Source: Nannobrachium achirus
Taxonomy: Eukaryota; Chordata; Actinopteri; Myctophiformes; Myctophidae
Direction: 5' to 3'
Length of the DNA: 64,000 nt
Assembly: GCA_963921795.1 (NCBI GenBank)
Contig: OY997644.1
Coordinates: forward strand, 2,347,254-2,411,253
The position numbers were made by a program, and so were the translations under genes. The notes beneath the pieces are model-generated. The model had not been told where the DNA came from and ran no database searches. It saw only the letters and a list, made by a program, of their open reading frames with translations. Below are positions 2,233 to 63,986 of the stretch, piece after piece (positions within the stretch are counted from its first letter, which is position 1; each line of letters starts with the position of its first letter).

Positions 2233-2793
2233 CCCATTCAGAACGGGTACATATTATTGTGTATCATTATTTTATGCTTTAACTATTGAAAATATAGTTA
2301 TATAGCTATATAGGTAGTCAAAATAGCAAAAAAATATTTTTTGAAAAATCGTGAAAATTTGAATTTTGACCCGATTCTATAAGTGTCTTTTGAATCCTTC
2401 TAAGATTTTTTGAAAAACCCATGTTTCTATGTCAGCAATCTGGCCAGCCATCGTCAAAGAAAAGGTCCTTTTCACTTAAATGGAACTCAGTTAGTCTGTT
2501 CTTGAGAGAATACTATGTCAGTGGTTCTCAAACCTTTTCATGTGAATTTATTTGGCCACGGACCCGCATCTCAAAATATCTAGTTCCAGGGACCACCCAG
2601 AAGCAAAATTTGATTTACAAACGTTCGCTTTGAAAACACATAATATTCAAAGATTTGCACCCATTTTCACGACTTTTTCCAAAAATAGCAGATCTACAAG
2701 CTCGCAGCGCGGCACTCGGTGCCGCGCTGCGAGCTTGTATATCTGCTATTATTCACTGGTTAAAGCATTCAATAATTCTAGGCCCTAAATGGG
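2233..2793. mobile_element. piggyBac-like MITE, family B (TTAA-flanked)
   Basis: TTAA at 2229-2232 precedes CCCATTCAGAACGGG, and AAATGGG followed by TTTTTAA closes it. Same family as 23824-24413, 39995-40590 and 48815-49467. Contains a GGACC-rich segment (TCAGTGGTTCTCAAACC onward). The right half carries the palindrome at 2682-2752. The left half has different sequence where other copies carry one. Confidence 0.65.
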
Positions 2794-2879
2794 TTTTTAA
2801 TGTGTCTAGAGGAAGGACCTCCATTGGCAGCCCATGGCCAGTAAGGCAACGCAGAGGCAGAGGGGGCAGAGCCACTGAT

Positions 2880-2930
2880 GACAAAAGCAGAGGTTCTGTG
2901 GTGGTGGTGGTGGTGGTGGGGGTGGGACGG
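2880..2930. repeat. GGT/GGG-rich simple repeat
   Basis: A run of GTGGTGGTGG followed by GGGGTGGGACGGGGGTGG. It creates long spurious open frames on both strands. Confidence 0.8.
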
Positions 2931-3135
2931 GGGTGGAGATGCGGTGGGAAGCAGTGGAGCTACGGAGCGCTTTATAGAGATGGGTTGCAGCATATAGGAC
3001 TGTTGGTGTTAAACCACAGGGCTTCTATCGGGGGCCTGCCGCACACATCCCTCCCTCGCTCACCGAAAGGCGGTGTAAAACAGACTAACAGCTCATTTAT
3101 ACTTCGTCATATCGCTCTGGTGCAACTGCAGAATT

Positions 3136-3178
3136 GATGCTTTTTCGACCTGTAAAGTGTCGACGTTAGCCCGTCGAC
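3136..3178. repeat. Short perfect hairpin
   Basis: TAAAGTGTCGACG and CGTCGACACTTTA flank a loop of a few bases. Not related to the common GATCTACAAGC palindrome. Confidence 0.6.
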
Positions 3179-3654
3179 ACTTTAGTCAGTCCTGCGGCAA
3201 AGCCTCGAGAGACCGAGAGGGACTGTAGTAGACGAAGTGTTGAAAAGGGTGGTCGAACCCGTTCTTAACGTATCACAACTGTATTCTTTGCATTTTTCAT
3301 CCTTTTCGTTTTACCCATATCCAGGGGTCATCAATGTGTCCGTACACGGACAAATGTGTCCAGGCAAGACTGTCTGTGGCAATAATGTTCTTATTTTTAT
3401 TACCAGTAAGAATCCCTAATCGAGAGATAAGCGACCATCAGGGGTCGCATACACAAACTTTAGAAGGCAATGGTAGCCAATCAGGAGGGAATATGGGAAA
3501 TGGGACAGATCCATGTTGATGACATGACTCTAGAGATACTGTGTACCGTTATCATAAGACCCAATTACGGAATGTCAGCGTCCAGGTTTTCTTCAGAATG
3601 ACACTATACATGGCACATTGGGTGTCTCAAATGTTTTATTTTCAAGGACCTCCA

Positions 3655-3712
3655 TAACTCTGAGTGTACAAATGGAACCAAATTTGGTTCCATTCGTACA
3701 CTCTCATAGTTA
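3655..3712. repeat. Second hairpin family, copy 1
   Basis: AACTCTGAGTGTACAAATGG runs into AACCAAATTTGGTT and then the complementary arm CCATTCGTACACTC. Arms are about 27 bp with virtually no loop. Related copies lie near 42770, 56818 and 60660. Confidence 0.75.
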
Positions 3713-4269
3713 AGCCTTTTGCACACGGACACATTTTTTTTTTTCACACAAAAGAAAAGGACAATTTCATTTTTTTAAAGAAAACAATGATTCTCTATGA
3801 CCTCGTGCACACCGGCTCCGAATTTGCCATGCGGCAGGTGGCTGCGGCTGTGCGTTTTTTTCCCGATCGAACCCAGTTCGTCTTGTCGCATGCGGTGAAA
3901 ACTCATTGACTCCTTTTATGACTTATTTTTGGATCCGGATTCCGCACAGCCTTGCACACCAAATCCAATGCGTTTTAATCAAGCAGCAAACGGAAAGAAA
4001 CGCAGCGGTCCTGTGTGCAAAGCCCTTTACACACCTGTTATTTAGGGCTAGATCTTGACCTGTAATTGTCATTTAGGGTCATTTATGTGTTTGTCTGTAC
4101 TCATTTTGTCCATGGCAAAAATTGAATTTTGACAAAAATGGCCACCGCAAGCCAGCATGGCGATGACCCCTGCCCATATCCCCTCACATATATACATATA
4201 CCGGTATATGGGCGTCACTATTCTTCACACATTTCTGCTTCTTTCGCTCAGCTCAATGAGTGCTTAGAG

Positions 4270-4736
4270 CAGGGGTTCCCAAACCTTTTTGTCTCAGGGC
4301 ACCCTATAAATATTTTTTTAATCCGAGGCACCCCTACATTATAATTTTCACTCCCAGCACCTTAAATTTATAGAATATCGTCGTTGTCGGTTGGAAACCT
4401 TGTATGTCCAAAACCTTTCTTTTTGTAGATCATCTATAAAATGTACTAAACTAGTGAAAACAGCCGATCTACATTGTGTGCTTGTAGATCGGCTGTTTTC
4501 ACTAGTTTTGTGCGACAGAGGTTTCTGCCTGATTATATTGCGAGGAAAACATTGAGATAATAGCCATTTTGGTTAGAACTGACCGAAAATAACTTTGTAC
4601 TTCAAGTTTAAAATGATACTAAATATTTCTTCAAGTGTCCAAATAAATTCCAAATATTATCAAATGATCTCGTGGCACCCCTGGACTGCCGTCGCGGCAC
4701 CCCAGGGTGCCCCGTCACCCACTTTGAAAACCCCTG
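4270..4736. mobile_element. hAT-like non-autonomous element with 8-bp TSD
   Basis: Ends are CAGGGGTTCCCAAA and TTTGAAAACCCCTG. The 8-bp TSD GCTTAGAG is perfect (4262-4269 and 4737-4744). Inside, 4380-4540 is a shortened family A element with a palindrome flanked on both sides by ACTAGT. Lies 43 bp from the itga11 exon 11 donor. Confidence 0.88.
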
Positions 4737-4778
4737 GCTTAGAGCTTATAGCAGTGATGTCTGCGTCTTTATGCTCAC

Positions 4779-4923
4779 CCAGGTAAGCACCGTGGTTCTT
4801 CAGCTCTTCGGGGAACTCCTGTGTGTAGGAGGACTTGGGAGGGATCACTTTACCCTGGCGGGTCTCCTTCAACACGGCTCCATTCCAGTCGTAGGCCCCC
4901 ACAGCACCCACTAGAATCCCGTC
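4779..4923 (-). CDS. itga11: itga11 exon 11 (return into the propeller)
   Basis: Encodes DGILVGAVGAYDWNGAVLKE, TRQGKVIPPKSSYTQEFPEE and LKNHGAYLG (last codon split). GAVGAYDWNG is the FG-GAP repeat just after the I domain. Donor is GTGAGC. No later exon was recognised between this donor and position 1. The hAT-like element 4270-4736 begins 43 bp past the donor, so the intron starts almost at once with repeat. Confidence 0.96.
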
Positions 4924-6337
4924 CTGGAAATGAAGGTGCAGTGTTAGTCATCAACAGTTTCTGTTTGTCATTGTAGCTGGACATGAGTACGGAACCTACT
5001 CTATACTGCGTGTCCTCTCCTCCGCGAACTGACAATCTGACATTTGTGTTTTTTCGTCGCATATTTGGCCATGTGTGTCCGACGGCTGCAACAATTACAT
5101 TGCTAGGCATCGTTTTGTGTTGTGTGTGTGTGACAAGGACCAGAACCCAGGACGGTCTCTATAAGACCTTGTTGGGTGGATTCAAATAGGGTCTTTATTC
5201 TCACAAAGGCTATTCAAAAGTGACATCGGCATTGGACCCTTATAGCATTGCTCATTAGGTAGACACCATTTACCAGCGCATTACAGTCCTATCCTATCCT
5301 ATATCCTATTATTCTTCTTTTCAAGCATAGTCGTACGACTACGTAGCCACTAGTCAGTGACCTCCAGCTTCTTGGTGGACTTTATTTGACAAGTGACAGC
5401 TATTTTCTGTAGAGGGGAGCTGTTGTGATCACCAGGAATGAACAAGACAACAAGACTCATCTGATTAGGATTTGAATAGACAAGCAAGGAACCACGTGTT
5501 AAGTACCATGCATAGTAGTACATAAGGACCGCAGGAATACACAAGCAACGGAGGGTGAGAGAACTTTACTCTGTTTGGTCCAGTTTGACTCCCAGTACTT
5601 AACACTCCGGATGATTTATCTCTGTATACGGACCCTTACGGACAGCACCCAACTGGACGGACTCAATGTACAAGATGTAGACCTATCCGTAGCAAGAAGT
5701 AGCCTACCCACGGCCACCGTTGTCAAACATAGGCGCAGTAGTGAGGAAAATTACTTTTCCTCTGCTCTATGACAGCGGTTCTCAAACTATGTGTCCCAAT
5801 GATAAATATATTGTATCAAGAAACGGTAAAAAAGGAACGTTGCAACAGGACGGCTTGACACACACGCGCGCGCGCGCAGTCACACACACACTGCCTATCC
5901 TCCTCCAACAGCTGCCAACAAGACGAGGCACACAAGAAGAGCTGAGTAATTAGCTCAGCGGCTCATCATATACTTGGGAATTATATGCGGGTGTGTTTTG
6001 TTATAATCACTCCGGGTCCTGATCCATATGTGGTTAAATCTGTACCCTCGCGGAGTTTTACATTTACCGCGAATCTGCTAAACAACTTTGCCGACAGACA
6101 GCAGAACCTGCAGTCCAGACTGTTACCACTTATAACATCACGTCGTCGGGTCAAGACATTCTGTGGTTCTACATATTTTGGCTGCTTCGTTTTTGTTAGC
6201 TATTCTGTTCTGTGCTGCGAGGCACTAAATGTGGCGCGCGGCCCAACGGAGAGCGGTCGGCACGGACATAACATAGAGGACACGTACACAAAATCAACCA
6301 TACGTAACTATAAATGGCCCTTTACTCCTCTGTGAGG

Positions 6338-6538: not shown

Positions 6539-6539
6539 C

Positions 6540-9667: not shown

Positions 9668-10187
9668 CCCTCTAAGGCCCACGGTTGTAATATTACAACG
9701 TTTGTATTTTATCCAAAAAAAGGTTTAAATCATTTTATTTTAGCTCCCCCTACCACCTAAACACCACCATTGGATTCTATTGTTTAGTATTACAATGCCA
9801 TTGGCCACAATATTTGCATATAAATACCCCCCACAGGGGCTGACATTCACACCCGCCACACCCGCTGAAATTCCAGAGTTTTGACGAACAACATCTCACT
9901 TTTTCATGGAAGCTATACCTCACAAAAACATAAGTAAAATGCCTGTACTATTTTTTTTGGTGATCATTAGAATGTCTAGAACATGTACATATGTTATTAT
10001 TGTGAAAAATATCCCCCATATGTAAATTAGAGCATGATTTATGATTTTTGATTTATGGCTATAAAATCTTACAAAAACATTTTTTTGAAAAAAACATTAC
10101 ATTTTCCTCTGAATAGGACTCCTACAACACCATCTGATTTTTTTCAATTTTTTATTTCAAGTATTTCTTAATGCGGGCCTTAGAGGG
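9668..10187. mobile_element. piggyBac-like MITE, 520 bp, TTAA TSD
   Basis: TTAA at 9664-9667 and 10188-10191 bound inverted ends CCCTCTAAGGCCC and GGGCCTTAGAGGG. No ORF of note, so non-autonomous. It does not contain the common palindrome. Confidence 0.85.
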
Positions 10188-13793: not shown

Positions 13794-14215
13794 TAGGGCA
13801 TTCACCAAATATTTGACTATTCGAATATCAAAGTCACTATTCGACTTTGTTCACCGAAGTCGAATATTCACTTTTTTTTTGGTTCGCCTTTAAAAATATA
13901 TATATTTCTTCATGGTTTATAAAGCTTGGCTTGATAGGAAGTCATAAGAACCCTGACAAGCACTTGGAATTGTAGGTATTACATTTAATGTGACTCGGTT
14001 CCGCAGATAAATATTGTGAAAATAGCAGATCTACATGCTCACAACACCTCGCAGCGCGAGGCGTTGTGAGCATGTAGATCGGATATTTTCACAATGTTCG
14101 CCTCTTGCTTACTTAATATTTGACAGTTTGGCCAGTCCTGTTGAATATTCGACTATTCGAATACTTTGAGGTCGAATAATTCGAATACTAAAAATCACTA
14201 TTCGTGAATGCCCTA
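13794..14215. mobile_element. hAT-like element with 8-bp TSD near itga11 exon 9
   Basis: Ends TAGGGCATTCAC and GTGAATGCCCTA; TSD GTGGTAGG is perfect (13786-13793, 14216-14223). Inner part is rich in ATTCGAATA. Around 13920-14130 it carries a family C segment with a palindrome at 14014-14096. Confidence 0.88.
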
Positions 14216-14633: not shown

Positions 14634-14892
14634 TCGTCATTGTCGGGTGGAAACCTTGTATGTCCAAGACCGTTCGTTTTGTATTTATCATTTTAAAAAT
14701 GAACTAAACTAGTGAAAATAGCAGATCTACAAGCACACAATGCCTCACACCGCGAGGCGTTGTGTGCTTGTAGATCGGCTGTTTTCACTACTTTTGTGCG
14801 ACAGCCTTGTGTGATGAAGCAGGGCTTTACTTGGTGAACAAAAGTACAAATTTGAAACTTGGAGATACGAGGTTTCTGCCCGACAGTGACGA
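14634..14892. mobile_element. Family A TA-flanked MITE, full length
   Basis: TA at 14632-14633 and 14893-14894 flank TCGTCATTGTCGGG ... CCCGACAGTGACGA. Terminal inverted repeats are about 33 bp and imperfect. Contains the palindrome at 14709-14790. TA target and short length suggest a Tc1/mariner-like MITE, but no transposase source is visible. Confidence 0.87.
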
Positions 14893-15420: not shown

Positions 15421-15674
15421 TCGCCAGTGTCGGGCAGAAACCTTGTATCTCCAAGTTTCAAATGTGTACATTTCTTCGCAAAGTAAAGCACTGCTTCATC
15501 ATCATCATACAAGGCCAAAGTAGTGAAAACAGCCGATCTACAAGCACACAACGCCTCGCACCGCGAGGCGTTGTGTGCTTGTAGATCGTCTGTTTTCACT
15601 AGTTTAAACCCTTTTAAAAATGATAAATACAAAACAAACAGTTTTGGACATACAAGGTTTCCACCCGACAACGA
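15421..15674. mobile_element. Family A MITE abutting the itga11 exon 8 donor
   Basis: TA at 15419-15420 and 15675-15676 flank the element, in opposite orientation to the copy at 14634-14892. Palindrome at 15524-15602. Its right end lies seven bases from the donor of exon 8. Confidence 0.9.
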
Positions 15675-15948: not shown

Positions 15949-16957
15949 TGTGTTGCACGTAGAATGCTGTACCGTGCAATGTTAATGCAGGTGTTTTGTA
16001 TAGAATGCTGTACCGTGCAATGTTAATGCAGGTGTTTTGTATAGAATGCTGTACCGTGCAATGTTAATGCAGGTGTTTTGTATAGAACGCTGTACCGTGC
16101 AATGTTAATGCAGGTGTTTTGTATAGAATGCTGTACCGTGCAATGTTAATGCAGGTGTTTTGTATAGAATGCTGTACCGTGCAATGTTAATGCAGGTGTT
16201 TTGTATAGAATGCTGTACCGTGCAATGTTAATGCAGGTGTTTTGTATAGAATGCTGTACCGTGCAATGTTAATGCAGGTGTTTTGTATAGAATGCTTGTA
16301 CCGTGCAATGTTAATGCATGGTGTTTTGTATAGAATGCTGTACCGTGCAATGTTAATGCAGGTGTTTTGTGTAGAATGCTGTAACGTGCAATGTTAATGC
16401 AGGTGTTTTGTATAGAATGCTGTACCGTGCAATGTTAATGCAGGTGTTTTGTATAGAATGCTTGTACCGTGCAATGTTAATGCATGGTGTTTTGTATAGA
16501 ATGCTGTACCGTGCAATGTTAATGCAGGTGTTTTGTGTAGAATGCTGTACCGTGCAATGTTAATGCAGGTGTTTTGTATAGAATGCTGTACCGTGCAATG
16601 TTAATGCAGGTGTTTTGTATAGAATGCTGTACCGTGCAATGTTAATGCAGGTGTTTTGTATAGAATGCTTGTACCGTGCAATGTTAATGCATGGTGTTTT
16701 GTATAGAATGCTGTACCGTGCAATGTTAATGCAGGTGTTTTGTGTAGAATGCTGTACCGTGCAATGTTAATGCATGGTGTTTTGTATAGAATGCTGTACC
16801 GTGCAATGTTAATGCAGGTGTTTTGTGTAGAATGCTTGTACCGTGCAATGTTAATGCAGGTGTTTTGTGTAGAATGCTTGTACCGTGCAATGTTAATGCA
16901 GGTGTTTTGCGTAGAATGCTGTACCGTCCAATGCTAATGCAAATGTGTTGCAGAGAA
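15949..16957. repeat. 41-bp minisatellite derived from the itga11 exon 7 donor junction
   Basis: About 24 units of GAATGCTGTACCGTGCAATG then TTAATGCAGGTGTTTTGTAT A. On the gene strand each unit contains GCATTAACATTGCACG followed by GTACAGC, identical to the end of exon 7 plus its donor. Variants include an extra T (GCTTGTACC) and GTGTAGAATG. Confidence 0.95.
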
Positions 16958-17363
16958 CAGTGGTTCTCAACCTGTGGGTCGGGACCCCCAGGGGGGTCCC
17001 CAAATTATTTTGGGGGGTCCCCAGATGATTAGCTTAATGTGCAACATTAAACAACAACAGTAAACAAGCCAACATAAAGTTTAAGTGTATAGAGGGTATC
17101 TGCACATTTTTAAAGTGACAATTTAAGGACTTTTTAATACCTCTAAATTGACAAATTAAACATTGGCCAAATTGTCAATTATTAGAGGCAGGAATCGTGA
17201 AAATAGCCGATCAACATGCTCACAACGCAGGCGTTGTGAGCATGTAGATCTGCTATTTTCACAATAGAACCGTGTTATACAAAATGTAATGCCTCAACTC
17301 TTGTCCCCAGATAAAAAAATAATTATTTGGGGGGTCGCGGCCTGAAAAGGTTGAGAACCACTG
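16958..17363. mobile_element. hAT-like family C inserted in the minisatellite
   Basis: Ends CAGTGGTTCTCAACCTG and GGTTGAGAACCACTG. TSD GCAGAGAA/GCATAGAA (one mismatch) is minisatellite sequence. Palindrome at 17197-17263 has stem ACATGCTCACAACGC, the CATGC variant. Confidence 0.9.
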
Positions 17364-17518
17364 GCATAGAATGCTGTACAACGCAATGTTAATGCAAATG
17401 TGTTGCATAGAATGCTGTACCGTGCAACGTGAATGCAAATGTGTTGCATAGAATGCTGTACCGTGCAACGTGAATGCAAATGTGTTGCATAGAATGCTGT
17501 ACCGTGCAATGTTAATGC
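17364..17518. repeat. Minisatellite units adjoining exon 7
   Basis: Four 41-bp steps at 17369, 17410, 17451 and 17492. The last one contains the true exon 7/intron 7 boundary at 17503/17502. The intron part here reads AAATGTGTTGCAT rather than GGTGTTTTGTAT. Confidence 0.93.
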
Positions 17519-20193: not shown

Positions 20194-20766
20194 CAGGGAC
20201 GTGCTGGGCGCCTGATTCAGCCCGGGAAAAAGAGTTGGAGAGGCCCTCATTGCGTGCTATAGAGAGAGATCTCTTTCTATAGCGCTGCTGATACTCAAAG
20301 ATTTGCCATTTCAGATCATGACAAGTGACAAGCCAGTGGGCCAATTACTGTACATGAGTTATATTTCGTCGTTGTCGGGTGGAAACCTTGTATGTCCAAA
20401 ACCGTTTGTTTTGTATTTATCATTTTAAAAATGATTTAAACTAGTGAAAACAGCCAATCTACAAGCACACAATGCCTCGCACCGCGGTCCGCGAGGCGTT
20501 GTGTGCTTGTAGATCTGCTGTTTTCACTACTTTTGTCGGCCTTATATGATGAAGCAGGGCTTTGCTTTGCGAAAAAATGTATACATTTGAAACTTGGAGA
20601 TACGAGGTTTCTGCCCGACAGTGACGATGGGGGCCGCCCAGCCCCCAAAATGGAACGAAGGCCGACATTTTTTATTTATTTTTCCTAATGACCGGCCTGG
20701 ACCGGCCGGGAATGAACCGGCCGTTCGGGAGTTGTCCCGCTTTTCCCAATGGCCAGCACGTCCCTG
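20194..20766. mobile_element. hAT-like family F with nested family A, 8-bp TSD
   Basis: Ends CAGGGACGTGCTGG and GCACGTCCCTG; TSD GGTATGGG is perfect (20186-20193, 20767-20774). Palindrome at 20444-20531. Confidence 0.9.
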
Positions 20767-23823: not shown

Positions 23824-24413
23824 CGCATTCAGAACGGGTACACATGTGTATCATTATTTTATGCTTTAACTATTGAAAAATAGCAGATATACAAGCTCAC
23901 AGCGCGGCACCGAGTGCCGCGCTGCGAGCTTGTAGATCTGCTATTTTTGAAAAATCATGAAAATTTGAATTTTGACCCGATTCTATAAGTGTCTTTTCAA
24001 TCCTTATAAGACTTTTTGAAAAAAACCTATGTTTCTATGTCAGCAATCTGGCCAGCCATCGTCAAAGAAAAGGTCCTTTTCACTTAAATGGAGCTCAGTT
24101 AGTCTGTTCTTGAGAGACTACTATGTCAGTGGTTCTCAAACCTTTTCATGTGAAGGACCCCCAAAATGATATTTATTTGGCCACAGACCCCCATCTCAAA
24201 ATATTTAGTTCCGGGGACCCTCCAGAAGCAAAATTTTACAAACGTTCGCTTTAAAAATGCATTATATTCAAAGATTTGCACATATTTTCACAACTTTTTT
24301 CAAAAATAGCAGATCTACAAGCTCGCAGCGCGGCACTCGGTGCCACGCTGTGAGCTTGTATATCTGCTATTTTTCACTGGTTAAAGCATTCAATAATTCT
24401 AGGCCTAAATTGG
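23824..24413. mobile_element. piggyBac-like family B, full length, two palindromes
   Basis: TTAA at 23820-23823 and 24414-24417. Palindromes at 23875-23949 and 24303-24378 are reverse complements of each other and lie in the long terminal inverted repeats. One arm of each has GATATACAAGC instead of GATCTACAAGC. Confidence 0.85.
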
Positions 24414-27034: not shown

Positions 27035-27473
27035 CAGGGGTCTTCAACGTTTTCAGGCCAAGGACCCCTTAGTTGAGAGAGAGATGAAGCAGGGACCCCC
27101 ACAACCTGTTCATAGATTCCAAATAGTTTCATTGTTTGACAACACAATCATGTATTTTGGATTCTGTCAATTTCTGTTTTCAGATATTTAACCACTTGAA
27201 CCGTCAATACTTAATAAACTTGGACTTTCACTCTGTACTTAGTCTGCTCTTTTTCCCCTCTACACCAAAGCTCTTGGCCAAAAATAGCCGATCTACAAGC
27301 TCAGATCGGCTATTTTTGGCTAAAGTTCTTCAAGGATTCAAGTATAAAAGTATAAAAGTATAAAAAAGTATAAAAAAGGAGAACAAAGTTTCTATCACAC
27401 AAAGATTTGGAGGACCCCCTGAAGTAACTCTGAGGACCCCCTAGGGGTCCCGGACCCCTGTTGAAGACCCCTG
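27035..27473. mobile_element. hAT-like family D with palindrome
   Basis: Ends CAGGGGTCTTCAACG and GTTGAAGACCCCTG; TSD GCTTACTG/CCTTACTG, 7 of 8. Short palindrome at 27279-27323 with shoulders TTGGCC and GGCTAA. Confidence 0.85.
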
Positions 27474-28121: not shown

Positions 28122-28678
28122 CAGGGGCGTCACTAGGGGTAGGAAAGTGGGACTGAGTTACTAGGGCCCAAGGTGGTGGAAGGGCCTTAATTATTTTATA
28201 CTTTAGCTTTTGAAAAATAGCAGATATACAAGCTCACAGCGCGGCACCGAGTGCCGCGCTACGAGCTTGTAGATCTGCTATTTTTTAAAAGTCGTGGAAA
28301 ATGTGTGCAAATCTTTGAATATATGTATTTTTTAAGCAAACATTTGTAACTCAAATTTTGCTTCTGGGGGGGTCCCTGGAACACAATATTTGGATATGGG
28401 GGTCCGTGGCCAAATACATACCATTTTGGGGGTCCTTCACATGAAAAGGTTTGAGCTCCACTGACATCGAAACATAGGTTTAAAAAGAAACCTTAGAAGG
28501 ATTTGAATTATTCAAAGATTTTCATGATTTTTCAAAAATAGCAGATCTACAAGCTCGCAGCGCGGCACTCGGTGCCGCGCTGTGAGCTTGTATATCTGCT
28601 ATTTTTCAATAGTTAAAGCACAGGGGCCCCACAGTGAATCCTTGTACCCAGGGCCCAGAATTTGGTGCGACACCCCTG
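28122..28678. mobile_element. hAT-like family I carrying part of family B and two palindromes
   Basis: Ends CAGGGGCGTCAC and GTGCGACACCCCTG; TSD ATCAGGAG is perfect (28114-28121, 28679-28686). Palindromes at 28209-28286 and 28534-28612. Confidence 0.9.
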
Positions 28679-30660: not shown

Positions 30661-31222
30661 CAGGGGCGTCACAAGGGGTAGGAAAGTGGGACTGAGTTAC
30701 TAGGACCCAAGGTGGTGGAGGGGCCTTAATTATTTTATACTTTAGCTATTGAAAAATAGCAGATATACAAGCTCACAGCGCGGCACCGAGTGCCGCGCAG
30801 CGAGCTTGTAGATCTGCTATTTTTGAAAAGTCGTGAAAATGTGTGCAAATGTTTGAATATATGTATTTTTTAAGCGAACATTTGTAACTCAAATTTTGCT
30901 TCTGGGGGGTCCCTGGAACTCAATATTTTGAGATGGGGTTCCGTGGCCAGATACATATCATTTTGGGGGTCCTTCACATGAAAAGGTTTGAGCTCCACTG
31001 ACATAGAAACATAGGTTTTTCAAAAAAAACCTCTGAAGGATTTGAAATATTCAAAGATTTTCATGATTTTTCAAAAATAGCAGATCTACAAGCTCGCAGC
31101 GCGGCACTCGGTGCCGCGCTGTGAGCTTGTATATCTGCTATTTTTCAATAGTTAACATTCATGGGGGGGGCCCCGCAGTGAATCCTTGTACCCAGGGCCC
31201 AGAATTTGGTGCGACGCCCCTG
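30661..31222. mobile_element. hAT-like family I, second copy
   Basis: TSD CCTGAAAC is perfect (30653-30660, 31223-31230). Palindromes at 30750-30826 and 31073-31149. Very similar to 28122-28678, so recent activity is likely. Confidence 0.9.
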
Positions 31223-32069: not shown

Positions 32070-32533
32070 ATGGTGGAAAGTAACTAAGCACATTTACTAC
32101 ACTAGTACTGTACTTAAGTAACATTTTGAGGTATTTGTACTTTACTTGAGTATTTCCCATTTCCAATACTTTCACTTCTACTCCACTACATTTATTTGAG
32201 AACTTTAGTTACTAGTTACTTTGTAGATTTTGATTATTATTACAAAACATGCATTAACCACTTCAGCCCTATATACATTTTGGCCATTTGAAAATAGCCG
32301 ATCTACAAGCTCTCAATGAGTCACATCGCAACGCATTGAGAGCTTGTAGACGTGCTATTTTCAAAAGATCTTTATACATTTGAAAACTTGAAATGGGACA
32401 TTTCTGCATAATGTGTACTTTTACTTTTGGTACTATAAGTACATTGTGATGCCAATACTTTTGTACTTTTACTCAAGTAAATGTAGAACTTAGCAAGTAA
32501 GAAATGTGATGACTTTTTCCGCCGCTGGACAAC
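32068..32533. mobile_element. Family G element (AGTAACTAAG type) with palindrome
   Basis: Starts near AATGGTGGAAAGTAACTAAG and ends near TTTCCGCCGCTG. A third copy of GTGACACATTCT follows at 32534. The palindrome 32286-32365 sits at its centre (AAGCTCTCAATG stem). Common fish repeat type. Confidence 0.7.
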
Positions 32534-39994: not shown

Positions 39995-40590
39995 TACCCA
40001 TTCAGGCCTAGAATTATTGAATGCTTTAACTATTGAAAAATAGCAGATATACAAGCTCACAGCGCGGCACCGAGTGCCGCGCTGCGAGCTTGTAGATCTG
40101 CTATTTTTGAAAAAGTCGTGAAAATATGTGCAAATCTTTGAATATATGTATTTTTAAAGCGAACGTTTGTAACTCAAATTTTGCTTCTGGGTGGTCCTTG
40201 GAACTAAATATTTTGAGATGGGGGTCCGTGGCCAAATAAATATCATTTTGGGGGTCCTTCACATGAAAAGGTTTGAGAACCACTGACATAGTAGTCTCTC
40301 AAGAACAGACTATCTGAGCTCACGTTAAGTGAAAAGGACCTTTTCTTTGACGATGGCTGGCCAGATTGCTGACATAGAAACACAGGTTTTAAAAAAAACC
40401 TTAGAAGGATTCAAAAGACACTTATAGAATCGGGTCAAAATTCGAATTTTCACGATTTTTCGAAAATAGCAGATCTACAAGCTCGCAGCGCGGCACTCGG
40501 TGCCGTGCTGTGAGCTTGTATATCTGCTATTTTTCAATAGTTAAAGCATAAAATAATGATACACAAGAATGTGTACCCGTTCTAAATGGG
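39995..40590. mobile_element. piggyBac-like family B, full length, reverse orientation
   Basis: TTAA at 39991-39994 and 40591-40594. Palindromes at 40031-40109 and 40462-40540. Lies 86 bp from the itga11 exon 2 donor. Confidence 0.83.
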
Positions 40591-40676
40591 TTAAAACGTC
40601 CTTAAATTGTCACTTCACTGTCACAGGGGACCCCCCCCACAGAGTTAAAATAAAGTCAAATAAAAAAGTGACATAC

Positions 40677-42923: not shown

Positions 42924-43459
42924 CAGTGTTTCTCAAACTGTGGTACATGTACCACTGGTGGTGGTACTTGAGCCCCCCTCTGATGGTACACAGAGGAGTC
43001 TCCCAAAAAAGAAGAAAAAAGATAAAAGCGGAGTCAAATATTTACATTATATTACAGGTAGTTCTGACCAAGCACTTGGTTGAAAAAGGCTCTGTCTGAG
43101 GCTTTGTCTCAATGTTTGTCTCAATGTCTGTCTCAATATATGTGGCATTGTGTGCAACTGCAGGAGATAAAGGAGTAGTTCACACAAAATAAGAAATTAC
43201 TTATGTTCGATCTGTTACACACCCCATGAAGCCTTGAATTCATGGTGATGTTTTTGTTTTTGTTGCATTCCTAAGCCATTCATCTGAGGACCGACGGAAT
43301 CGGCCCTATTGACCCGATGATCAAATAATTGGCTTGTGCATAGCAGAATAGGATGGGATAGGTCTACTAACCTGTATTTTAACATCAGTTATTGGTGGTA
43401 CTTGGAGAGACAGATATTTTCTGAGGTGGTACTTGGTGTAAAAAGGTTGAGAACCACTG
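42924..43459. mobile_element. hAT-like element without palindrome
   Basis: Ends CAGTGTTTCTCAAACTGTGG and GGTTGAGAACCACTG; TSD CTTTATAC is perfect (42916-42923, 43460-43467). Interior has GGTGGTACTTG motifs. No GATCTACAAGC hairpin. Confidence 0.88.
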
Positions 43460-45655: not shown

Positions 45656-46041
45656 TAACAGATATCTCCATATATGGGCATAAATAAAGGGACACAGACA
45701 GACAGATACAGAGATCTCCATATATGGGCATGAAATGGACGCAAATAGACAGATATCTCCATATATGGGCATATATGGGCATAAAATGGACTCAGAACTA
45801 TATCTGCAGTGATCTCCATATATGGACATAAAATGGACACTGACAGACAGACAGACAGACAGATAACAGATATCTCCATATATGGGCATAAATGGACACA
45901 GGCAAACAGATGGTCAAAACGGGTCCTATGACAACAGGTATAATGGGGTTTGCATTAAAGGGCGGGGCATTCATTCCCTATTTACATCGTTCCCGAGTTG
46001 GCCAGGTCGCCGACTAGACGCTGGGCCGGCCCAGCTTCTAG
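44790..46041. mobile_element. Helitron-like non-autonomous element
   Basis: Begins TCTATCTATAAATGCG after A and ends with hairpin GCTGGGCCGGCCCAGC, TT, CTAG before T. That is the A/T insertion and 3' hairpin-CTRR signature of Helitrons. The opposite palindrome arm keeps the uninterrupted target. Interior holds CTGT and GACA runs and a CCATATATGGGCAT satellite. Confidence 0.9.
45120..45900. repeat. Satellite of CCATATATGGGCATAAA units inside the Helitron
   Basis: Repeated GATCTCCATATATGGGCATA AAATGGAC units of variable spacing, mixed with (GACA)n at about 45603-45655 and 45841-45865. Produces a 256-codon open frame on the minus strand that is an artefact of the repeat. Confidence 0.92.
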
Positions 46042-47336
46042 TAAGACATAATAAGACAGAATAAAGCCATAATAAGAAATAATGTGTTGGTAATTAGAGC
46101 TAATATATTTTATTAGACAGAAACAAAGACAGAATAGTAGAAAGAGCGAATACATTCTCTGGCACCGTCACCTGCCGCGGAACTGCAGCGGCAGACACTG
46201 CCGCACGACCGCTAGTTCGACCAGCAGTCGCACTGCATCGCCGGCGATAGTTACCAGCGATGCCGGTGCCAGATAATGTATTCGCTTTCTGCTATTCTGT
46301 CTCAGCCACCACCGCACGGACGGGCAGTTTACCGCTACGGGACTGCTGGTCCTATCGCCGGCGATGCAGTGCGACTGCTGGTCGAACTAGCGGTCGTGCG
46401 GCAGTGTCTGCCGCTGCAGTTCCGCGGCAGGTGACGGTGCCAGAGAATGTATTCGCTCTTTCTACTATTCTGTCTTTGTTTCTGTCTAATAAAATATATT
46501 AGCTCTAATTACCAACACATTATTTCTTATTATGGCTTTATTCTGTCTTATTATGTCTTATTATGTCTTAAAGTGTACTGTAAAAGAGGATGGGACCGAT
46601 ATTTTTGCTTACTTTTTCCATCACTGATGATGTACCAGATGAACAGAACACATTCAGACAGGAGGTGCATTAGAAGATAGGTGGAGGAGGAGCTGTCTCT
46701 CCCTACTCATCCTCCCCTTGTTCTCTCAATGATCTCTACATGTATTTCAACAGTCATTCATTATGGCCCTCTCACAACTACACAGTATGTCTCTTTTTTA
46801 AACTCTCAAAATCAAATGATAACTCTGGATTTTACTGTGCAGTGAATAGTGATACAGTATATTATGTCCATTTACTGTAATGCCTGAGTTATTCTTGTGC
46901 GGGGGTGTCACACGCATTAAATAGCCGATCTATAATCTCACGCTTAATAGATCAGTTATGTTAGCGCAAAACTGAGCATTGTGCATTGACTCAACATTGA
47001 TACTGAGAAATGACTGAATCCAAGCCAAACATATACAGCAGACTTCTTGCAGAGTCAGAATGTCACATCACAACTCAGCGATGGTAACAGAACACCATCC
47101 CAGAAACTGCAAGAAGAGAAGTTTAAAGAAAGGAGGAGGAAATGAGAAGAAAGAAAGAGAAGCAGCTTTTAAAGTAATCATGCTTAATGAGATATAATAG
47201 AGTTTAGTTTCCAAAAGGATTGACTGTTGCTATTGCTCAAGAGAATAATCGTTTTTTCACTGTTGGAGCTCCCCATTCCAGCTGAGATTTATTTCATAGA
47301 GCACAAATTTGCAGAGCTCTGGTCACAAAGACAAGT

Positions 47337-52510: not shown

Positions 52511-52951
52511 CAGGGTTCCCCAATTAGTTTTCCTCAAGGGCCAAATTATGTCTAGGGTACCAAGCCGAGGGCCACAACATTGCAGGGGGCGACGGTGGCG
52601 TTCCCACTACTCCAGTGACAGTTTTCGTCGTTGACGGGTGAAAATCTTGTTTTTCCAAAACCGTTCGTTTTAAAAATGATTTAAACTAGTGAAAACAGCC
52701 GATCTACAAGCACACAACGGCTCGCACCGTGTGCTTGTAGATCTGCTGTTTTCACTACTTTTGTGCGACGGCCTTGTATGATTTGCAAAAGAACGCACAG
52801 ATTTGGAGATATGAGATTTCCACCCGACAACGACGATATACTAGTGTTGTTGCTGCTCTTATACCACCATTATTACTGGGGTTGGTGTGGGCCAGACAGT
52901 AGCCACCCGCGGGCCGCAAATGGCCCGCGGGCCACCTATTGGGGAACCCTG
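52511..52951. mobile_element. hAT-like family E with nested family A
   Basis: TSD CTGTAGGC is perfect (52503-52510, 52952-52959). Palindrome at 52687-52757. Family A is shortened. Confidence 0.9.
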
Positions 52952-53834: not shown

Positions 53835-54381
53835 CAATGTTGATTTCGTCGACTAAAACTATGACGAAATTTTTTTGTCAACTTGTGTTTTTTTCACTGA
53901 CGAAAACTAAATAAAAACTAAACAAAAACTAAGCTGTGGTGACTAAAACTAAGACTAAATATATTGTCAATTTCGTCAACAAAATAAAAACTAGACTAAA
54001 ACGTTAGGGAGGGACTAGTGGAGAAGAGAGTAATTTTATGTTTGGTTGCTCTCAGGAGTTGCGTGCTGAAAATAGCCGATCTACAAGCTCACAACGCGTC
54101 GCAGCGTGACGCGTTGTGAGCTTGTAGATCTGCTATTTTCAGCACACAAACAAGTGTAAAATCAGTCATTACGATGCCATCAAGGCCTGCCAAAATACAT
54201 TTCAGTCGACTAAATAAACTGTAGATTTAGTCGCCTAAAAGCTTATGATATTTAGTCGACTAAAATTAGACTAAAACTAAAACTTTTCAGTTGACTAAAT
54301 TATGACTAAAATCAAATTACATTTTATTCAAAAGACTATGACTAAAAACTAAATCAAAATTTGCTGTCAAAAACAACACTG
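53835..54381. mobile_element. hAT-like element of ACTAAAACTA type with palindrome
   Basis: TSD CTTCATAG is perfect (53827-53834, 54382-54389). Ends CAATGTTG and CAACACTG. Interior is rich in GACTAAAACTA. The palindrome 54066-54146 is nearly perfect, with shoulders GTGCTGAAAATAG and CTATTTTCAGCAC. Confidence 0.88.
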
Positions 54382-55530: not shown

Positions 55531-55984
55531 CAGTGGTTCTCAACCTGTGGGTCGGGACCTCCAGAGGGGTACCCAAATTATTTTGGGGGTCTCCCAGATG
55601 TTGCATGTTAATATTGTTTTCTCATTCAACAGTGAACAAACCAACATAAAGTTTAAGTGTATAGAGAGTATCTGCACATTTCTAAATCGACAATTTAAGG
55701 ACTTTAAAGACCTTTTTAGTACCTCTGGTCAAACATTGGTCAAATTGTCAAATATTAGAGGCTGAAATTGTGAAAATAGCAGATCTACATGCTCACAACG
55801 CCTCGCAACGCGAGGCGTTGTGAGCATGTAGATCGGCTATTTTCACAATGGAATAGATCGAGTCAAACCAAATGTGTACCAAATGCCAACTCCTACAATT
55901 CCAAGTGCTTGTGCAGGGTTGGGGGTCCCCAGTTAAAATATGATTATTTTGGGGGTCACGGCCTGAAAAGGTTGAGGACCACTG
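55531..55984. mobile_element. hAT-like family C with intact palindrome
   Basis: TSD CTCTACAG is perfect (55523-55530, 55985-55992). Palindrome at 55770-55846 with shoulders ATTGTG and CACAAT. Its right part and flank are duplicated in inverted form at 57472-57790. Confidence 0.9.
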
Positions 55985-56107: not shown

Positions 56108-56552
56108 CAGGGGTCTTCGATAGGGGGTCCGGGACCCCAAGGGGTCCTCAGAGTTTCTACAGGGGCCCCACCAAATCATAGAATACTTATTTTAACATGA
56201 ACCACTTGAACCCTAGAATCCGTATTCTTAGGGGAACATTGGCTGAAAACAGCAGATGGACACAGCAGAACGCTTGTAGATCTGTTATTTTTAGGAAAGA
56301 GGTTTGGTGAATACTGTAGAGGGGGAAAAGAGCAGACCAAGTACGGAGTGAAAGGTGAAAAGTATTGACGGCCTAAATGGTTACATGTAATTTACACTTG
56401 ATGATAGTGCTGTCAAACAAGTCTATGAATCTATCTATTAAATTTATGGAAAAAGTTTAAAAGGAATATATTTAATATGTTGTGGGTGTCCCTGCTTCAT
56501 CTCTCTCTCAGCTATAAGAGGTCCTTGGCGTGAAAAACGTAGATGACCCCTG
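56108..56552. mobile_element. hAT-like family D with decayed palindrome
   Basis: TSD GCATAAAG is perfect (56100-56107, 56553-56560). Palindrome remnant at 56246-56300 (GAAAACAGCAGATGGACACA). Confidence 0.88.
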
Positions 56553-56631: not shown

Positions 56632-57034
56632 TAGGGGTGGGCGATATGGAAAAATACAATGTCACAATATTTTCCCAAGCTGTATCACGATACATGATTT
56701 TATCACGATTCTTTTTCACACTGGTTTTTCATGGTTATTTTTCAAGTTACTTGACAAAAACTAGACTCTCTGGGTTTCTTTTGGGAGGTCTAAATTGAAC
56801 TGTACAAGTACTGTATGTAACTCTGACAGTATACAAATGAAACCAAATGGACCCGTAAGGGTCAAATGCAGGTTTAAATTGAATTCTGCAATGAATCTCT
56901 GTATTAACAATTAAACAGGATTTTTTACAAGGCTCCCTCAATTGTATCACGATATATACGATACCTCTGAAAAGGCATATTGTGGAGACATTGTATCGTC
57001 TCAACGATAATTATCACCATATCGCCCACCCCTA
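56632..57034. mobile_element. hAT-like MITE with GTGGGCGATATGG ends
   Basis: Ends TAGGGGTGGGCGATATGG and CCATATCGCCCACCCCTA; TSD TTTACACT is perfect (56624-56631, 57035-57042). One arm of the second hairpin family lies inside near 56818. Confidence 0.9.
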
Positions 57035-59431: not shown

Positions 59432-59516
<85 letters not shown>

Positions 59517-59805
59517 GCTTACATGTTGTGAGCATGTAGATCGGCTATTTTCCCAATTTCTTCCTCTAATATTTGACAGTTTGGCCAATGTTTCATTTGT
59601 CATTTTAGAATTTAGAGGTATTAAAAAGTCCTTAAACTGTCACTTTAGAAATGTGTAGATACCCTCTATACACTTGAACTTTATGTTGATTTGTTTACTG
59701 TTGAGAGAGAAAACAACATGGCACATTAAGTTAACCATCTGGGGACCCCCCAAAATAATTTGGGGACCCCCCTGGGGGTCCCGACCCACAGGTTGAGAAC
59801 CACTG
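59370..59805. mobile_element. hAT-like family C, reverse, with CA expansion replacing half the palindrome
   Basis: TSD CTCTAGAC/CTCTAGCC (7 of 8). A (CA)n run (59433-59516) occupies the left arm position and only AGCATGTAGATCGGCTATTT of the palindrome remains. Confidence 0.82.
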
Positions 59806-60012
59806 CTCTAGCCAGTATTTTGACTTTTGTCTGCATTCAAGTTCACTATGCACTGCCCTCATGTCCAAACCTCTGCTTTCAACAAGATTCCAGTCCAAGT
59901 AAATATTTACAAAAGATTTCCATTCCTCCACCAAGTCTTTTTTTGTTGTTGTTCTTTTAAATAGTGCTATTAACCAAATTGAGGATTCATGAGATCTTTA
60001 TTAATGATTACT

Positions 60013-60014
<2 letters not shown>

Positions 60015-60068
<54 letters not shown>

Positions 60069-60138
60069 ATATTGTCAAGTTAAATGACACGAATCAAACC
60101 GGAATCAAAAAGAAATATGACTTTGCACGCACGCACGC

Positions 60139-60178
<40 letters not shown>

Positions 60179-60216
60179 GCACACACACGCACACACGCAC
60201 ACACACACACACACAC
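60015..60216. repeat. Two CA microsatellites
   Basis: (CA)n at about 60015-60062 and CA/CGCA at about 60125-60216. Confidence 0.95.
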
Positions 60217-60621
60217 GTTGCTGCATGGTATTGCGATTTCACTGGTAATTGACCCCAGTCCTGGCTACTCACCAGCACCTCTCCCAGAGTCGCTGGAAAT
60301 TCTGACCACTTGATTATGAAAAGATAGCATCAGCTTTCACTTGAAACGACATGTCTGTTTCCAATGAATGAGAGGCGGCTAGAGAGCACCTCAGCAGACC
60401 TGAGCGAGCCAACACATCCCTCAACAAAGAGCCAGCTCAGCATCCCTGAGTCTCGACCACAGCGTGAGGTCAAGATGATGGGAGGCGACGGTATATGAGA
60501 TTGTGGAATAGATAATACAAGCAAACTGTAAGGTCGATCTCCAAATCCTGATATACTTACAACAGAAAAAAAGCTAATCTATTTCAAAGTGTAGCCTACA
60601 GTAGTATATAGTAGACGAGTG

Positions 60622-60824
60622 CAGTGGTTCTTAAACGTTTAAAATGTCAAGGTCTCACCTTAACTCTGACAGTATACAAATGGAACAAAATGGACCTGTC
60701 AGGGTCCAATTGGTTCCATTTGTATACAGTCAGAGTAACAGACTTGTAACAGACTTGTATGGGTCCATTTAGACCCCCCTAAAGGAACCCACAGAGTCCT
60801 TGGAATCCACTTTGAGAACCACTG
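60622..60824. mobile_element. Short hAT-like element carrying the second hairpin
   Basis: Ends CAGTGGTTCTTAAACG and TTTGAGAACCACTG. The TSD is weak (GACGAGTG/GTATAGTG). A hairpin at 60660-60737 pairs TAACTCTGACAGTATACAAA with TTTGTATACAGTCAGAGTAA. Confidence 0.7.
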
Positions 60825-61043
60825 GTATAGTGCACAAAACTTTTTTTTGGGGGTAAATGTTTTTTTGGGTAAATGTAAAAAAAAAAAAAAAGCACTTATT
60901 GTGCAATTATAAAACCACCAAAGTATTTAGACTAAAATAGAGACATGTTTCCATTCAGCCTACAGAAATGTCAGGAATAATGCAGACAACAGAAATGCAC
61001 ATACACACACACACGCACGTGAATACAATATACTTTAACTCAC

Positions 61044-61092
61044 CTAGCATCTGGCCACAGATCCAGAGCAGTAGGCAACAGTAGTACTCCAT
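61044..61092 (-). CDS. itga11: itga11 exon 1 (start codon, signal peptide)
   Basis: Reads MEYYCCLLLWICGQML plus one base, then a consensus donor GTGAGT. The Cys/Leu-rich core fits a secretory signal peptide for a type I membrane protein. The ATG has G at +4. Phase 1 matches the acceptor of exon 2. The exon lies 20 kb upstream of exon 2, and with so few codons the call rests mainly on phase, position, the donor and signal-peptide character. Confidence 0.8.
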
Positions 61093-61300
61093 TAGGTTAT
61101 GCATGTGTGGATACAGTATGTGTGCACGTGTTGATGCGTGTATATGCGTGTGCGCGTGCGTGCCGTGTGAGTGTGTGTCGGGTGTGTGGGCTGAGGCAGA
61201 GAGAACCCAGCGGCGTGCACTGTTAAAGATCCCGCTCTGATTGACTCCCCCCTCACAGGGAAAAGCCTCTATATCTGGGGGAAGTAGGAGGGACCGTGGG
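61093..61300 (-). promoter_or_regulatory. itga11: putative itga11 5'UTR and core promoter
   Basis: Reading toward exon 1, a TATA-like stretch (GATATAGAGG) lies near 61268-61277. A start about 30 bases downstream would give a 5'UTR of around 150 nt, rich in CA and CACGCA. This is position-based inference. No initiator or conserved factor site was established. Confidence 0.3.
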
Positions 61301-61399
61301 GCTGCTATGCAAGGAGGAGGTCCACTTTGACACAGCAGGCAGGAGTCCTCTACTCCTCCTCCTCCTCCTCTTCACTCCTCCTCACTCGACTTGACCCGG

Positions 61400-63420
61400 T
61401 TCAGGGCCGGAGTGGGCCTGTCTGGGCCATAGGGACCCATACACCCTTCCAGGCCACTCTACCCAAACACTAGGCAACATGAAAACACATGAACGCGCCT
61501 GCCACTCGCACTCACACACATGTGACAGCCTTACAGAGTTTCAGTTCTGTTTGGCTGAGATGTTTCTTGTAAAACAAAACACATAAAAAACTAATATACT
61601 AATATATACCATCCACTGTAGGCCTACAGAAGTAGTCACTACAACACTCGCTTCTGTGCAGGAGCAATCATATGAAGACAACAGTTACAGCATTTTTCCT
61701 TTCCACATGGGCTAAGTAATCACTGAAAATCATTATTCCATATATACCAACAGTCACACTAGAAAGTGTTCTATATCCAGTCCATATTATTTATATGGTA
61801 TGCAATTAAATAAAAATATAGTATTATTTTGTCAGAAAAGCATTTAGATGTCAGCTTACTATATCAATATTATATGCAAACGCCAATGTTCAATGTCAAA
61901 CTGTACAATCTAGTACTGTACTGTATTATCACTGAGTAGAGCTCTGCATGCACCTCTCCCCCGGAATAATCTTATATTCAGTTAGAATCATCACTATCTG
62001 CTAGTAGTTCCACTCTGCTAGTAGTGCTATGGAACCTCCTATTCAGTTAGGAAGACATTGTGGAATAATTACTGGAACTAACAAGCACTGGCCTCCACCC
62101 TACAAACAACATACCACATAGCTAGCTTACAGATTGTCTGTTTCAACAGCACAGCAGCTTCACATGTTTCTCTATCCCACAAAAACATCAATCAATCAGG
62201 TAGCCACATGTATCACAGTCAAGCTCAAATTATATATAATATGACAACAATAGTGTAGAATATGCCTGAAGATGGTGTATGAAACTCCAACTCAGTACAA
62301 TGTTTCCCATTTCTTAACTTCTGTCCATACATTAGCATAATCACTTAGTAGTGTGGTCTCAGGGATAGATAGCACCTTAACTCTGCAGCCGCACAGAGGC
62401 GCTCCAACACAAAATTGCAGCAGTTATTTTAGAGTTGTGCATACTAGTATCCACCAAATGTTTCCTCCAAACCCTCAAGTGTAACTTGATAGTCATTACA
62501 GACAGCAATTTGCGTTCATGCTATTAAAATGGTCTAACTTTGTTAGGGTACGAAATGGAACAAATTGTGTTCTTAATAATCCTAATAATAGCAATGAATT
62601 TATCTGGCCTAATGCTCCCCTAGGGATCCACATGCATGTTGAGAAACTTGAGAAGAACCAGTGTTTATATTGAAACAACTTACTTGTTGCTGCATCATTC
62701 TTACTAGAAGACTGCATGCTGAAGCTTTGAACATTTCAGTCAGTATAACATTTCCCCCCCATCCTTCTCTCCCTTCAGCTCCATGTTTTCTCTTTTTCTT
62801 TGTGGGGCTATGCGGCTGGGGTTGGGGTCCATAATTTAACTATTTATTTATTTATTTTGTCGCCTTCTTCTCTCTGCTGTCTGGCCACTATCCTCAGTCA
62901 GACGTGTGTTTGTGTGCTGCCTTCCTTAGCCGGTCGGCCTGTCTGTGAGCACGCTTGTGGTAGGGCCTGGCCAGAAAGCCAAACTAACCAATCACGCATT
63001 GATTATTCTAAAAAAAAAAGTTGATTGCTGTCCTTTTTGACCAATCCCTTGGGGAGAAAACCCATGTTGCTTTTCTGTTTAGAGAGGGGAGGGGGCGAGT
63101 AGCTGTCAGCACAGGCCAGCTGTGGTGTCAAGTTACACAGGCAGGGCTGCTGTATGAAGCCCTGCTGGCTATGTGGCCTGCGCAAAGGGGATCTTTTTAT
63201 TTTTTTCAGGAGGCACCAGGCCAGTTTTTGCACTAGTAAAGCGCAATCAAGCGCTGCGCTGCACTGGCTGTAGCTGGCCTGAGGCTAGGGGAAAACACCA
63301 GGCCACCAGGCCAGTGGCGGCGGCGCAGTCCACCGGGAATCGTCCCCCTACTCCCTACTGTCAATCCGGGCCTGGGTTCAACTCAGGCTGAGATGCAGTT
63401 TAATTTTGTCGAGTAAGAAC
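61400..63420. other. Upstream of itga11, no gene recognised
   Basis: Would contain distal promoter. Short T/C-rich and ATTT repeats (62840-62856). No exon of a neighbouring gene identified on either strand. Confidence 0.45.
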
Positions 63421-63426
63421 CATGAT

Positions 63427-63986
63427 CAGGGACCTGCTGGGCCCCTGATTCAGCCCAGGAAAAAGAGTTGGAGAGGCCCTCATTGCGCGCTATAGAGAGA
63501 GATCTCTCTCTATAGCGCTGCTGCTACTCAAAGATTTGTGACAAAGTGACAAGCCATGGGTCAATTACAAGAGTTATATTTCGTCGTTGTCGGGTGGAAA
63601 CCTTGTATGTCCAAAACCGTTTGTTTTGTATCTATCATTTCAAAAATGATTTAAACTAGTGAAAACAGCCGATCTACAAGCACACAACGCCTCGCACCGC
63701 GAGGCGTTGTGTGCTTGTAGATCGGCTGTTTTCACTACTTTTGTGCGACGGCCTTGTATGATGAAGCAGGGCTTTGCTTTGCGAAAAAATCCACAAATTT
63801 GAAACTTGGAGATACGAGGTTCTGCCCGACAGTGACGATTTACTTTGTTGGCCGCCCAGCCTCCAAAGTGGAACGAAGGCAGACATTTATTTTTTTATTT
63901 TTTCCTAATGGCCGTTCTGGACCGGCCGGGAATGAACCGGCCGTTCGGGAGTTGTCCCGCTTTTCCCAATGGCCAGCACGTCCCTG
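63427..63986. mobile_element. hAT-like family F with nested family A and near-perfect palindrome
   Basis: TSD ACCATGAT/ACTATGAT, 7 of 8. Palindrome at 63657-63737 has both arms GCCGATCTACAAGCACACAA and its complement, one of the best-matched copies. Confidence 0.88.

What the first reader, a model, noticed from the sequence alone, without database searches (positions are those of the whole stretch)
2682..63737. One palindrome, about 36 copies, inside at least eight unrelated transposon families
A 50-80 bp hairpin with arms built on AAAA(T/C)AGC(C/A)GATCTAC AAGC (or CATGC) recurs across the window (e.g. 4450-4506, 14709-14790, 27279-27323, 32286-32365, 54066-54146, 55770-55846, 63657-63737). 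It sits near the middle of hAT-like families C, D, G, I and the 53835 element, TTAA-flanked family B, and TA-flanked family A, which is itself carried by families E, F and the 4270 element. These hosts share no other sequence and differ in ends and TSD length. Common ancestry of hosts is therefore a poor explanation. A hairpin able to move or be copied between transposons fits better. Elements such as 42924-43459 and 9668-10187 lack it, so it is not a requirement of short elements here.
Basis: partly seen in the sequence, partly recalled or inferred. Interest (0 to 1): 0.88.

Follow-up and report, generated by a model that had tools for sequence, protein, structure and literature searches.

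The report
One palindrome shared by many transposons
The same 71-base DNA palindrome sits inside many otherwise different small transposons of a transposon-rich animal genome; it appears to ride on them, often in nested copies, rather than to jump by itself, and how it first crossed between transposon families is still open.

Summary
The window holds 33 strict (36 loose) hairpins with AAAAYAGCMGATCTACAWGC-type arms; shuffles give 0. Genome-wide (1.66 Gb) the arm 16-mer occurs about 356,000 times; 38,490 hairpins have both arms exact at fixed spacing; controls 0. A sample extrapolates to about 0.4 million.

"Unrelated hosts" is half right. Part of the host list is nesting: element A in three hAT-like hosts, a TTAA element in another, C in a fourth. 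Some hosts have related flanks. But five carrier groups (TTAA group, A, C, D, H) share only the core: identity drops from 91% inside to 25-30% outside.

A freely jumping hairpin is not supported: 78 of 87 distinct hairpins lie in repeated flanks, and most hairpin-poor host copies read look like ragged deletions. The stem is kept palindromic with few G-U steps (26 compensated cells, 6 one-sided).

Best reading: a hitchhiking palindromic module, rarely copied between transposon founders (template switching, inferred), then amplified and nested by its hosts. Nearest precedent: coral CMITEs. A selected plug-in role stays possible.

The parts
4270..4736 (.). hAT-like host (duplication GCTTAGAG) carrying an A element (from about 4383) with a shortened hairpin at 4457-4499
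13794..14215 (.). hAT-like host with TAGGGCATTCAC ends (duplication GTGGTAGG) holding part of a C element with hairpin 14019-14089
   Evidence: relative L018:9093-9576
14634..14892 (.). TA-flanked family A element, hairpin 14715-14785 near its middle
15526..15596. hairpin of another A element (inverted copy of the previous one)
17200..17259 (.). C-type hairpin, 60 bp
20194..20766 (.). hAT-like host (duplication GGTATGGG) carrying an A element with hairpin 20447-20524
23877..24373 (.). family B two-hairpin module (hairpins 23877-23947 and 24303-24373)
27281..27316 (.). shortened F-type hairpin inside an hAT-like element
28122..28678 (.). hAT-like host (duplication ATCAGGAG) carrying the B-type two-hairpin module (28214-28284, 28535-28605)
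30661..31222 (.). second hAT-like host of the B-type module (duplication CCTGAAAC; hairpins 30753-30823, 31074-31144)
32291..32361 (.). E-type hairpin, next to a TTAACCACTTCAGCCCTA end
39995..40594 (.). family B element with TTAA-type ends, hairpins 40037-40107 and 40463-40533 (ends read by eye)
52511..52951 (.). hAT-like host (duplication CTGTAGGC) carrying an A element with hairpin 52692-52752
53835..54381 (.). hAT-like family D element (duplication CTTCATAG), hairpin 54069-54139
55531..55984 (.). hAT-like family C element (duplication CTCTACAG), hairpin 55773-55843
56108..56552 (.). hAT-like family F element (duplication GCATAAAG), decayed hairpin 56246-56291
63662..63732 (.). full-length A-type hairpin (34 of 35 core pairs)

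Best explanation
The palindrome is a discrete hitchhiking module of 71 bp. Its copy number comes from transposition of its carriers, not from movement of its own (supported by shared flanks). Several carriers got it second-hand, when a hairpin-bearing MITE (A, an F-type TTAA element, C) came to lie inside another MITE that then amplified (seen for five hosts). Between the primary carrier groups only the core is shared. There the most likely route is rare ectopic copying during repair of excision gaps or replication breaks: a hairpin-forming strand switches template at one of the hundreds of thousands of hairpins and the palindrome is pasted into the element (inferred). The same hairpin-primed template switching would keep the inner stem palindromic and, in A, C, D and E, lengthen it outward with local sequence (the effects are seen, the process is inferred).
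For: 78 of 87 distinct hairpins have a flank recurring at another hairpin. Nesting: A inside 4270-4736, 20194-20766 and 52511-52951; a TTAA-bounded F element inside an hAT-like host in L009; C inside L018:9093-9576. Sharp border: identity between seven representatives 0.91 at arm positions 1-20 (1-17 inflated by the search pattern), 0.69 at 21-35, 0.30 in the first five bases outside, 0.25 beyond. Compensated stem change with few one-sided steps: 26 against 6 cells, 20 unpaired, 0 of 500 shuffles. Stem extension beyond the core: at least 4 bases in 58 of 87 and at least 6 in 28 of 87 hairpins, against 17% and 6% for flanks paired across carriers; medians A 9, C 6, C' 9, D 10 (one copy), E 5. 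Ragged hairpin-poor copies.
Against: No transfer event was caught between two datable states. B and F stems extend only about 4 bases and H about 2, hardly beyond the control. A mismatch at stem position 9/63 (C against A) persists in 21 of 26 non-B rows of 71 bp, so arm-to-arm correction is not frequent there. The 11 hairpins include related ones (three B, two C, two H), so its cells are not independent. Five of 20 C copies (L041, L043, L052, L054, L058) keep few or no stem letters and could be old empty sites.
Confidence: 0.42

Rival explanations
1. Only nesting and descent: one old hairpin-bearing MITE lineage (perhaps the TTAA group) inserted into other elements repeatedly; its own ends have decayed or been deleted in carriers such as C, D and H, so that only the conserved core is recognisable.
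For: Five nested cases. F, Q and P share both flanks (z 4.1-8.1) and B, E and F are linked more weakly (z 2.8-4.3). The flank of D recurs beside an intact piggyBac-like gene (z 13.1).
Against: No inner element border seen in C, D or H; the edge of the shared block is the same in seven representatives although decay should leave ragged borders; outer stems are carrier-specific in A, C, D and E.
Confidence: 0.28
2. Selected plug-in: the palindrome raises the transposition of whatever short cut-and-paste element carries it, for instance as a cruciform hinge that brings the two ends together, or as a protein-binding site (piggyBac-type transposases bind palindromes in their ends), so elements that captured it won.
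For: 19 of 43 candidate 8-bp-duplication elements hold a strict hairpin against 4.9 for random placement, maximum 12 of 300 runs. In ten hand-picked host families the hairpin is nearer the middle than uniform, p = 0.0009; p = 0.029 without the three A composites. The arm core is kept across carriers. piggyBac and piggyBat transposases bind palindromic end sequences (PMC11707139, passages).
Against: The enrichment is partly circular, since hairpins live in hosts, and some candidates overlap or are false. Central position also follows from MITE birth by internal deletion around an insert. Hairpin-free families exist (42924-43459, 56632-57034). In the piggyBac element examined the arms lie far from its ends.
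Confidence: 0.18
3. A self-moving micro-transposon: the arms are its terminal repeats and it inserts by itself.
For: Conserved outer arm, freer inner part, sharp border; A and two G copies have TA on both sides (by eye).
Against: Nearly all hairpins lie in recurring flanks; C and D have inverted, not direct, flanking letters (by eye); no constant duplication; no longer relative with these arms as ends was found in the sequence held (not an exhaustive search).
Confidence: 0.07
4. A microRNA-like or other RNA hairpin carried by the elements.
For: Very stable predicted RNA fold (z -13.3 to -16.7 for four hairpins).
Against: G-U type cells are rare (2.3% of 1802 cells; 6 one-sided against 26 compensated); the DNA fold is as exceptional; no Rfam match at gathering thresholds in the window.
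Confidence: 0.05

Closest known systems
CMITE families of Acropora corals (PMC2872659; passages and section 10 read)
   Same: Short MITEs with different terminal repeats share a conserved internal region of 75 bp.
   Different: All CMITEs have TTAA duplications; about 1,600 copies were estimated in one coral; the passages and section I read do not call the region a palindrome. Here hAT-like, TTAA and TA carriers are involved and copies run to hundreds of thousands.
piggyBac/piggyBat end palindromes (PMC11707139; passages read)
   Same: Palindromes in a transposon, bound by transposase domains.
   Different: Those are short (14-19 bp) and near the transposon ends; here the stem is over 70 bp and mostly central, also in hAT-like and TA elements. 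Binding not tested.
Nested or composite MITEs, e.g. CMITE-IN (PMC2872659, passages)
   Same: A MITE inserted in another sequence, the composite moving as a unit.
   Different: Here it accounts for part of the hosts only.
Foldback MITEs of fish such as Angel (recalled, no paper read)
   Same: Short hairpin-forming elements at high copy; hairpins were proposed to aid amplification.
   Different: There the whole element is the hairpin; here the hairpin is an insert shared by different elements.

Membership tests
hAT-type MITE (hosts C, D, F, 4270, 20194, 52511, 28122) | 8-bp target-site duplication with terminal inverted repeats starting CA or TA | tested here: met
hAT-type MITE (hosts) | mobilised by a named hAT transposase with matching ends | not tested
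   hAT transposase domains exist in the genome (150 scored matches) but none was matched to a host
piggyBac-type MITE (B, inner F) | TTAA on both sides and matching terminal repeats | tested here: met
   L009 and L028 elements
piggyBac-type MITE (B, inner F) | ends shared with an autonomous piggyBac element | tested here: inconclusive
   the one element whose ends were seen has other ends; others not bounded
CMITE-like group | conserved internal region shared by MITEs with different terminal repeats | tested here: met
CMITE-like group | all members with TTAA duplications | tested here: not met
   8-bp and TA duplications
self-moving micro-transposon | constant target-site duplication directly at the hairpin and clean empty sites | tested here: not met
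   five C copies remain open
microRNA-type RNA hairpin | pairing kept through G-U steps, or a known RNA family | tested here: not met
microRNA-type RNA hairpin | expression and processing | not testable with these tools
   no expression data

The most novel reading that the evidence does not exclude
A superfamily-independent plug-in for DNA transposons: a central palindrome that works as a cruciform hinge (or factor-binding site), raises the mobility of whatever short cut-and-paste element captures it, and so spreads from family to family by template-switch copying, as a second-order parasite of transposons.
Probability: 0.13. Interest if true: 0.88.

Novelty: new variant of a known kind. Interest (0 to 1): 0.55.

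Why it matters
One internal module appears to cross transposon superfamily borders at a scale of hundreds of thousands of copies. That makes it testable whether internal sequences of MITEs are passengers or part of their success, and how a palindrome is kept near perfect at DNA level over long times.

Tried and rejected
Micro-transposon with a TA duplication: fits A and some G copies, fails for C and D (by eye).

Clean empty sites: sought with joined-flank queries for A and C. For A, 12 of 62 matches were fetched; 8 junctions were read, 4 were not located by the script. Seven of the 8 keep some stem letters to different extents (L029 only the outer stem); L033 keeps none. For C, 20 of 56 matches were fetched, chosen because the query aligned in one piece; L041, L043, L052, L054 and L058 keep few or no stem letters, L055 was aligned badly, the rest keep stumps.

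Native to piggyBac transposons: 15 arms in 7.7 kb upstream of seven intact genes, 1 in 7.2 kb downstream, 149 in 200 kb of sample; several of the 15 are nested A or Q copies, so this is not shown.

Weak flank similarities (A with H or G, z 3.3-3.7) were not taken as real because several hundred pairs were compared. In one search positions were averaged in a way that flattered the centre; one search replaces it. A first count of 89 hairpins held two duplicates from overlapping loci; one search gives 87. An earlier statement of mine that every carrier has an extended outer stem did not stand: B, F and H hardly do.

Paper searches. They listed no report of this palindrome; the arm letters as text gave one listing that looks unrelated (listing only) and none. 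Subscription papers and Repbase reports are not in the library.

Full report
WHAT IS THERE. The window lies in a 1.66-Gb genome of 564 contigs. Loose matching pairs 36 hairpins, strict matching 33, with none in the reversed window or in 20 shuffles. Genome-wide the 16-mer AAAAYAGCMGATCTAC has 177,814 forward and 178,106 reverse exact matches, control 0. Hairpins with both 15-base arms exact and exactly 31 bases between number 38,490, control 0. In 20 loci spread over the genome (192,197 unmasked bases) 46 hairpins give 0.24 per kb, or about 0.4 million by extrapolation; the window, at 0.52 per kb, is about twice as dense. Window, sample and eight loci chosen by the arm pattern hold 87 distinct hairpins (89 rows, two of them duplicates), of which 52 have a core of exactly 71 bp. 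Four tested hairpins fold as single strands with z of -13.3 to -17.0, as RNA and as DNA.

HOSTS. 78 of the 87 hairpins have at least one flank that recurs at another hairpin of this small sample. Terminal repeats with exact 8-bp duplications mark nine window hosts as hAT-like; others are TTAA-bounded (B and an inner F element, in sample loci) or TA-bounded (A). The list of independent hosts shrinks by nesting. A lies inside the hosts at 4270-4736, 20194-20766 and 52511-52951. An F element bounded by TTAA (L009:6932-7119) lies inside an hAT-like element. A C element with one of its ends lies inside the TAGGGCATTCAC host L018:9093-9576 (inner borders partly by eye). The two-hairpin B module occurs with TTAA ends and with hAT-like ends and shares more than the hairpins there. 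Anchored flank alignment against shuffles relates F, Q and P (z 4.1-8.1) and links B, E and F weakly (z 2.8-4.3). What remains are at least five groups without a flank relation that I could show: the TTAA group, A (with G at most weakly similar), C, D and H.

BORDER. Across seven representatives (A, B, C, D, E, H, P) identity between carriers is 0.91 at arm positions 1-20 and 0.69 at 21-35, 0.30 in the first five bases outside and 0.25 beyond. Positions 1-17 are inflated by the search pattern, the rest are not. At the same time the bases just outside often pair with each other within one hairpin: an extension of at least 4 bases (one mismatch allowed) in 58 of 87 and of at least 6 in 28 of 87, against 17% and 6% when flanks of different carriers are paired. 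It is marked in A (median 9), C (6), C' (9), D (10, one copy) and E (5), and slight or absent in B, F and H. Where it is marked, the outer stem is carrier-specific, which neither direct duplications nor leftovers of a common element would give.

HOW THE STEM EVOLVES. In 11 hairpins chosen to span the carriers (with three B, two C and two H among them) 13 of 34 pairs changed on both sides: 26 cells against 6 one-sided and 20 unpaired. 0 of 500 shuffles reached this, and slid structures fall far below. One-sided G-U steps, expected if RNA were selected, are few; over all 53 rows of 71 bp, G-T type cells are 2.3% and other mismatches 6.5%. Against complete arm-to-arm correction: a C/A mismatch at position 9/63 persists in 21 of 26 non-B rows.

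HAIRPIN-POOR HOSTS. In family A, 7 of 8 junctions read keep stem letters of different extent. In family C most of 20 do, but five keep few or none. With exact flanks, A has 3,276 + 3,324 copies with a gap of 61-90 bases and 94 + 89 with a gap of 0-30; the two flank patterns differ in length, so the ratio is rough. Loss is a minority state and mostly looks secondary.

PASSENGER OR PART? Of 43 candidate 8-bp-duplication elements (some overlapping or in tandem repeats) 19 hold a strict hairpin; random placement gives 4.9, at most 12 in 300 runs; for 94 TA candidates 12 against 9.4, and for 7 TTAA candidates 1 against 0.7, no excess. In ten host families from 15 hand-picked elements, two-hairpin B elements left out, the hairpin is nearer the middle than a uniform position (p = 0.0009; 0.029 without three A composites). 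This fits a helpful role, but also the birth of MITEs by internal deletion around an insert.

AUTONOMOUS RELATIVES. PF13843 gave 116 scored matches, mostly open frames, several with identical scores on different contigs. One element was bounded on its right by two copies whose identity ends at a TTAA; the left end is inferred from the only TTAA there; length about 6.5 kb. It carries several hairpin arms far from its ends. The flank of D recurs upstream of another such gene (z 13.1). Whether hairpins are native to these elements is undecided. No hAT host was matched to its transposase (one search gives positions only).

CONCLUSION. Amplification by hosts and nesting are well supported; the sharply bounded core in carriers without related flanks is seen; transfer by template switching is inferred and unproven. 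The nearest described case known to me from the papers read is the coral CMITE group (PMC2872659, section 10 and passages), with a 75-bp core shared by TTAA MITEs. A plug-in role in transposition is the boldest reading left open.

Noticed in passing
L061-L074 (flanks of seven intact piggyBac-like genes, 14.9 kb): TTAA, the piggyBac target, is strongly depleted: 3 found against 40.6 expected, while the 20 sample loci have 1154. One bounded element has 1 against 10.2 in the 5.4 kb read; A copies nested in two such genes have none, against a mean of 1.56 in 18 other A copies, 3 of which have none. It may reflect avoidance of self-insertion (suicidal autointegration is described, PMC3952818, passages).
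   Followed up: partly
genome contig C2, about 71.34-71.84 Mb: A cluster of many same-strand piggyBac-like transposase matches, mostly with open frames, unlike the scattered copies elsewhere.
   Followed up: no
genome-wide, family A: Among 100 listed of 183 hairpin-poor A copies, about 40 (counted by eye) share the same span of 53 bases, suggesting a recurrent or amplified shortened form.
   Followed up: no
window 46039-46563: A 212-base inverted repeat with 100% complementary arms and 101 bases between, without the hairpin.
   Followed up: no
window 15960-16941 and 17364-17518: Two arrays of a related 41-base tandem repeat on either side of a C-type hairpin element.
   Followed up: no
stem position 9/63 of the hairpin: One arm reads AGCC, the other AGCA, in 21 of 26 non-B rows of 71 bp; all 27 B rows are A on both arms. 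It marks an orientation in an otherwise symmetric palindrome.
   Followed up: partly
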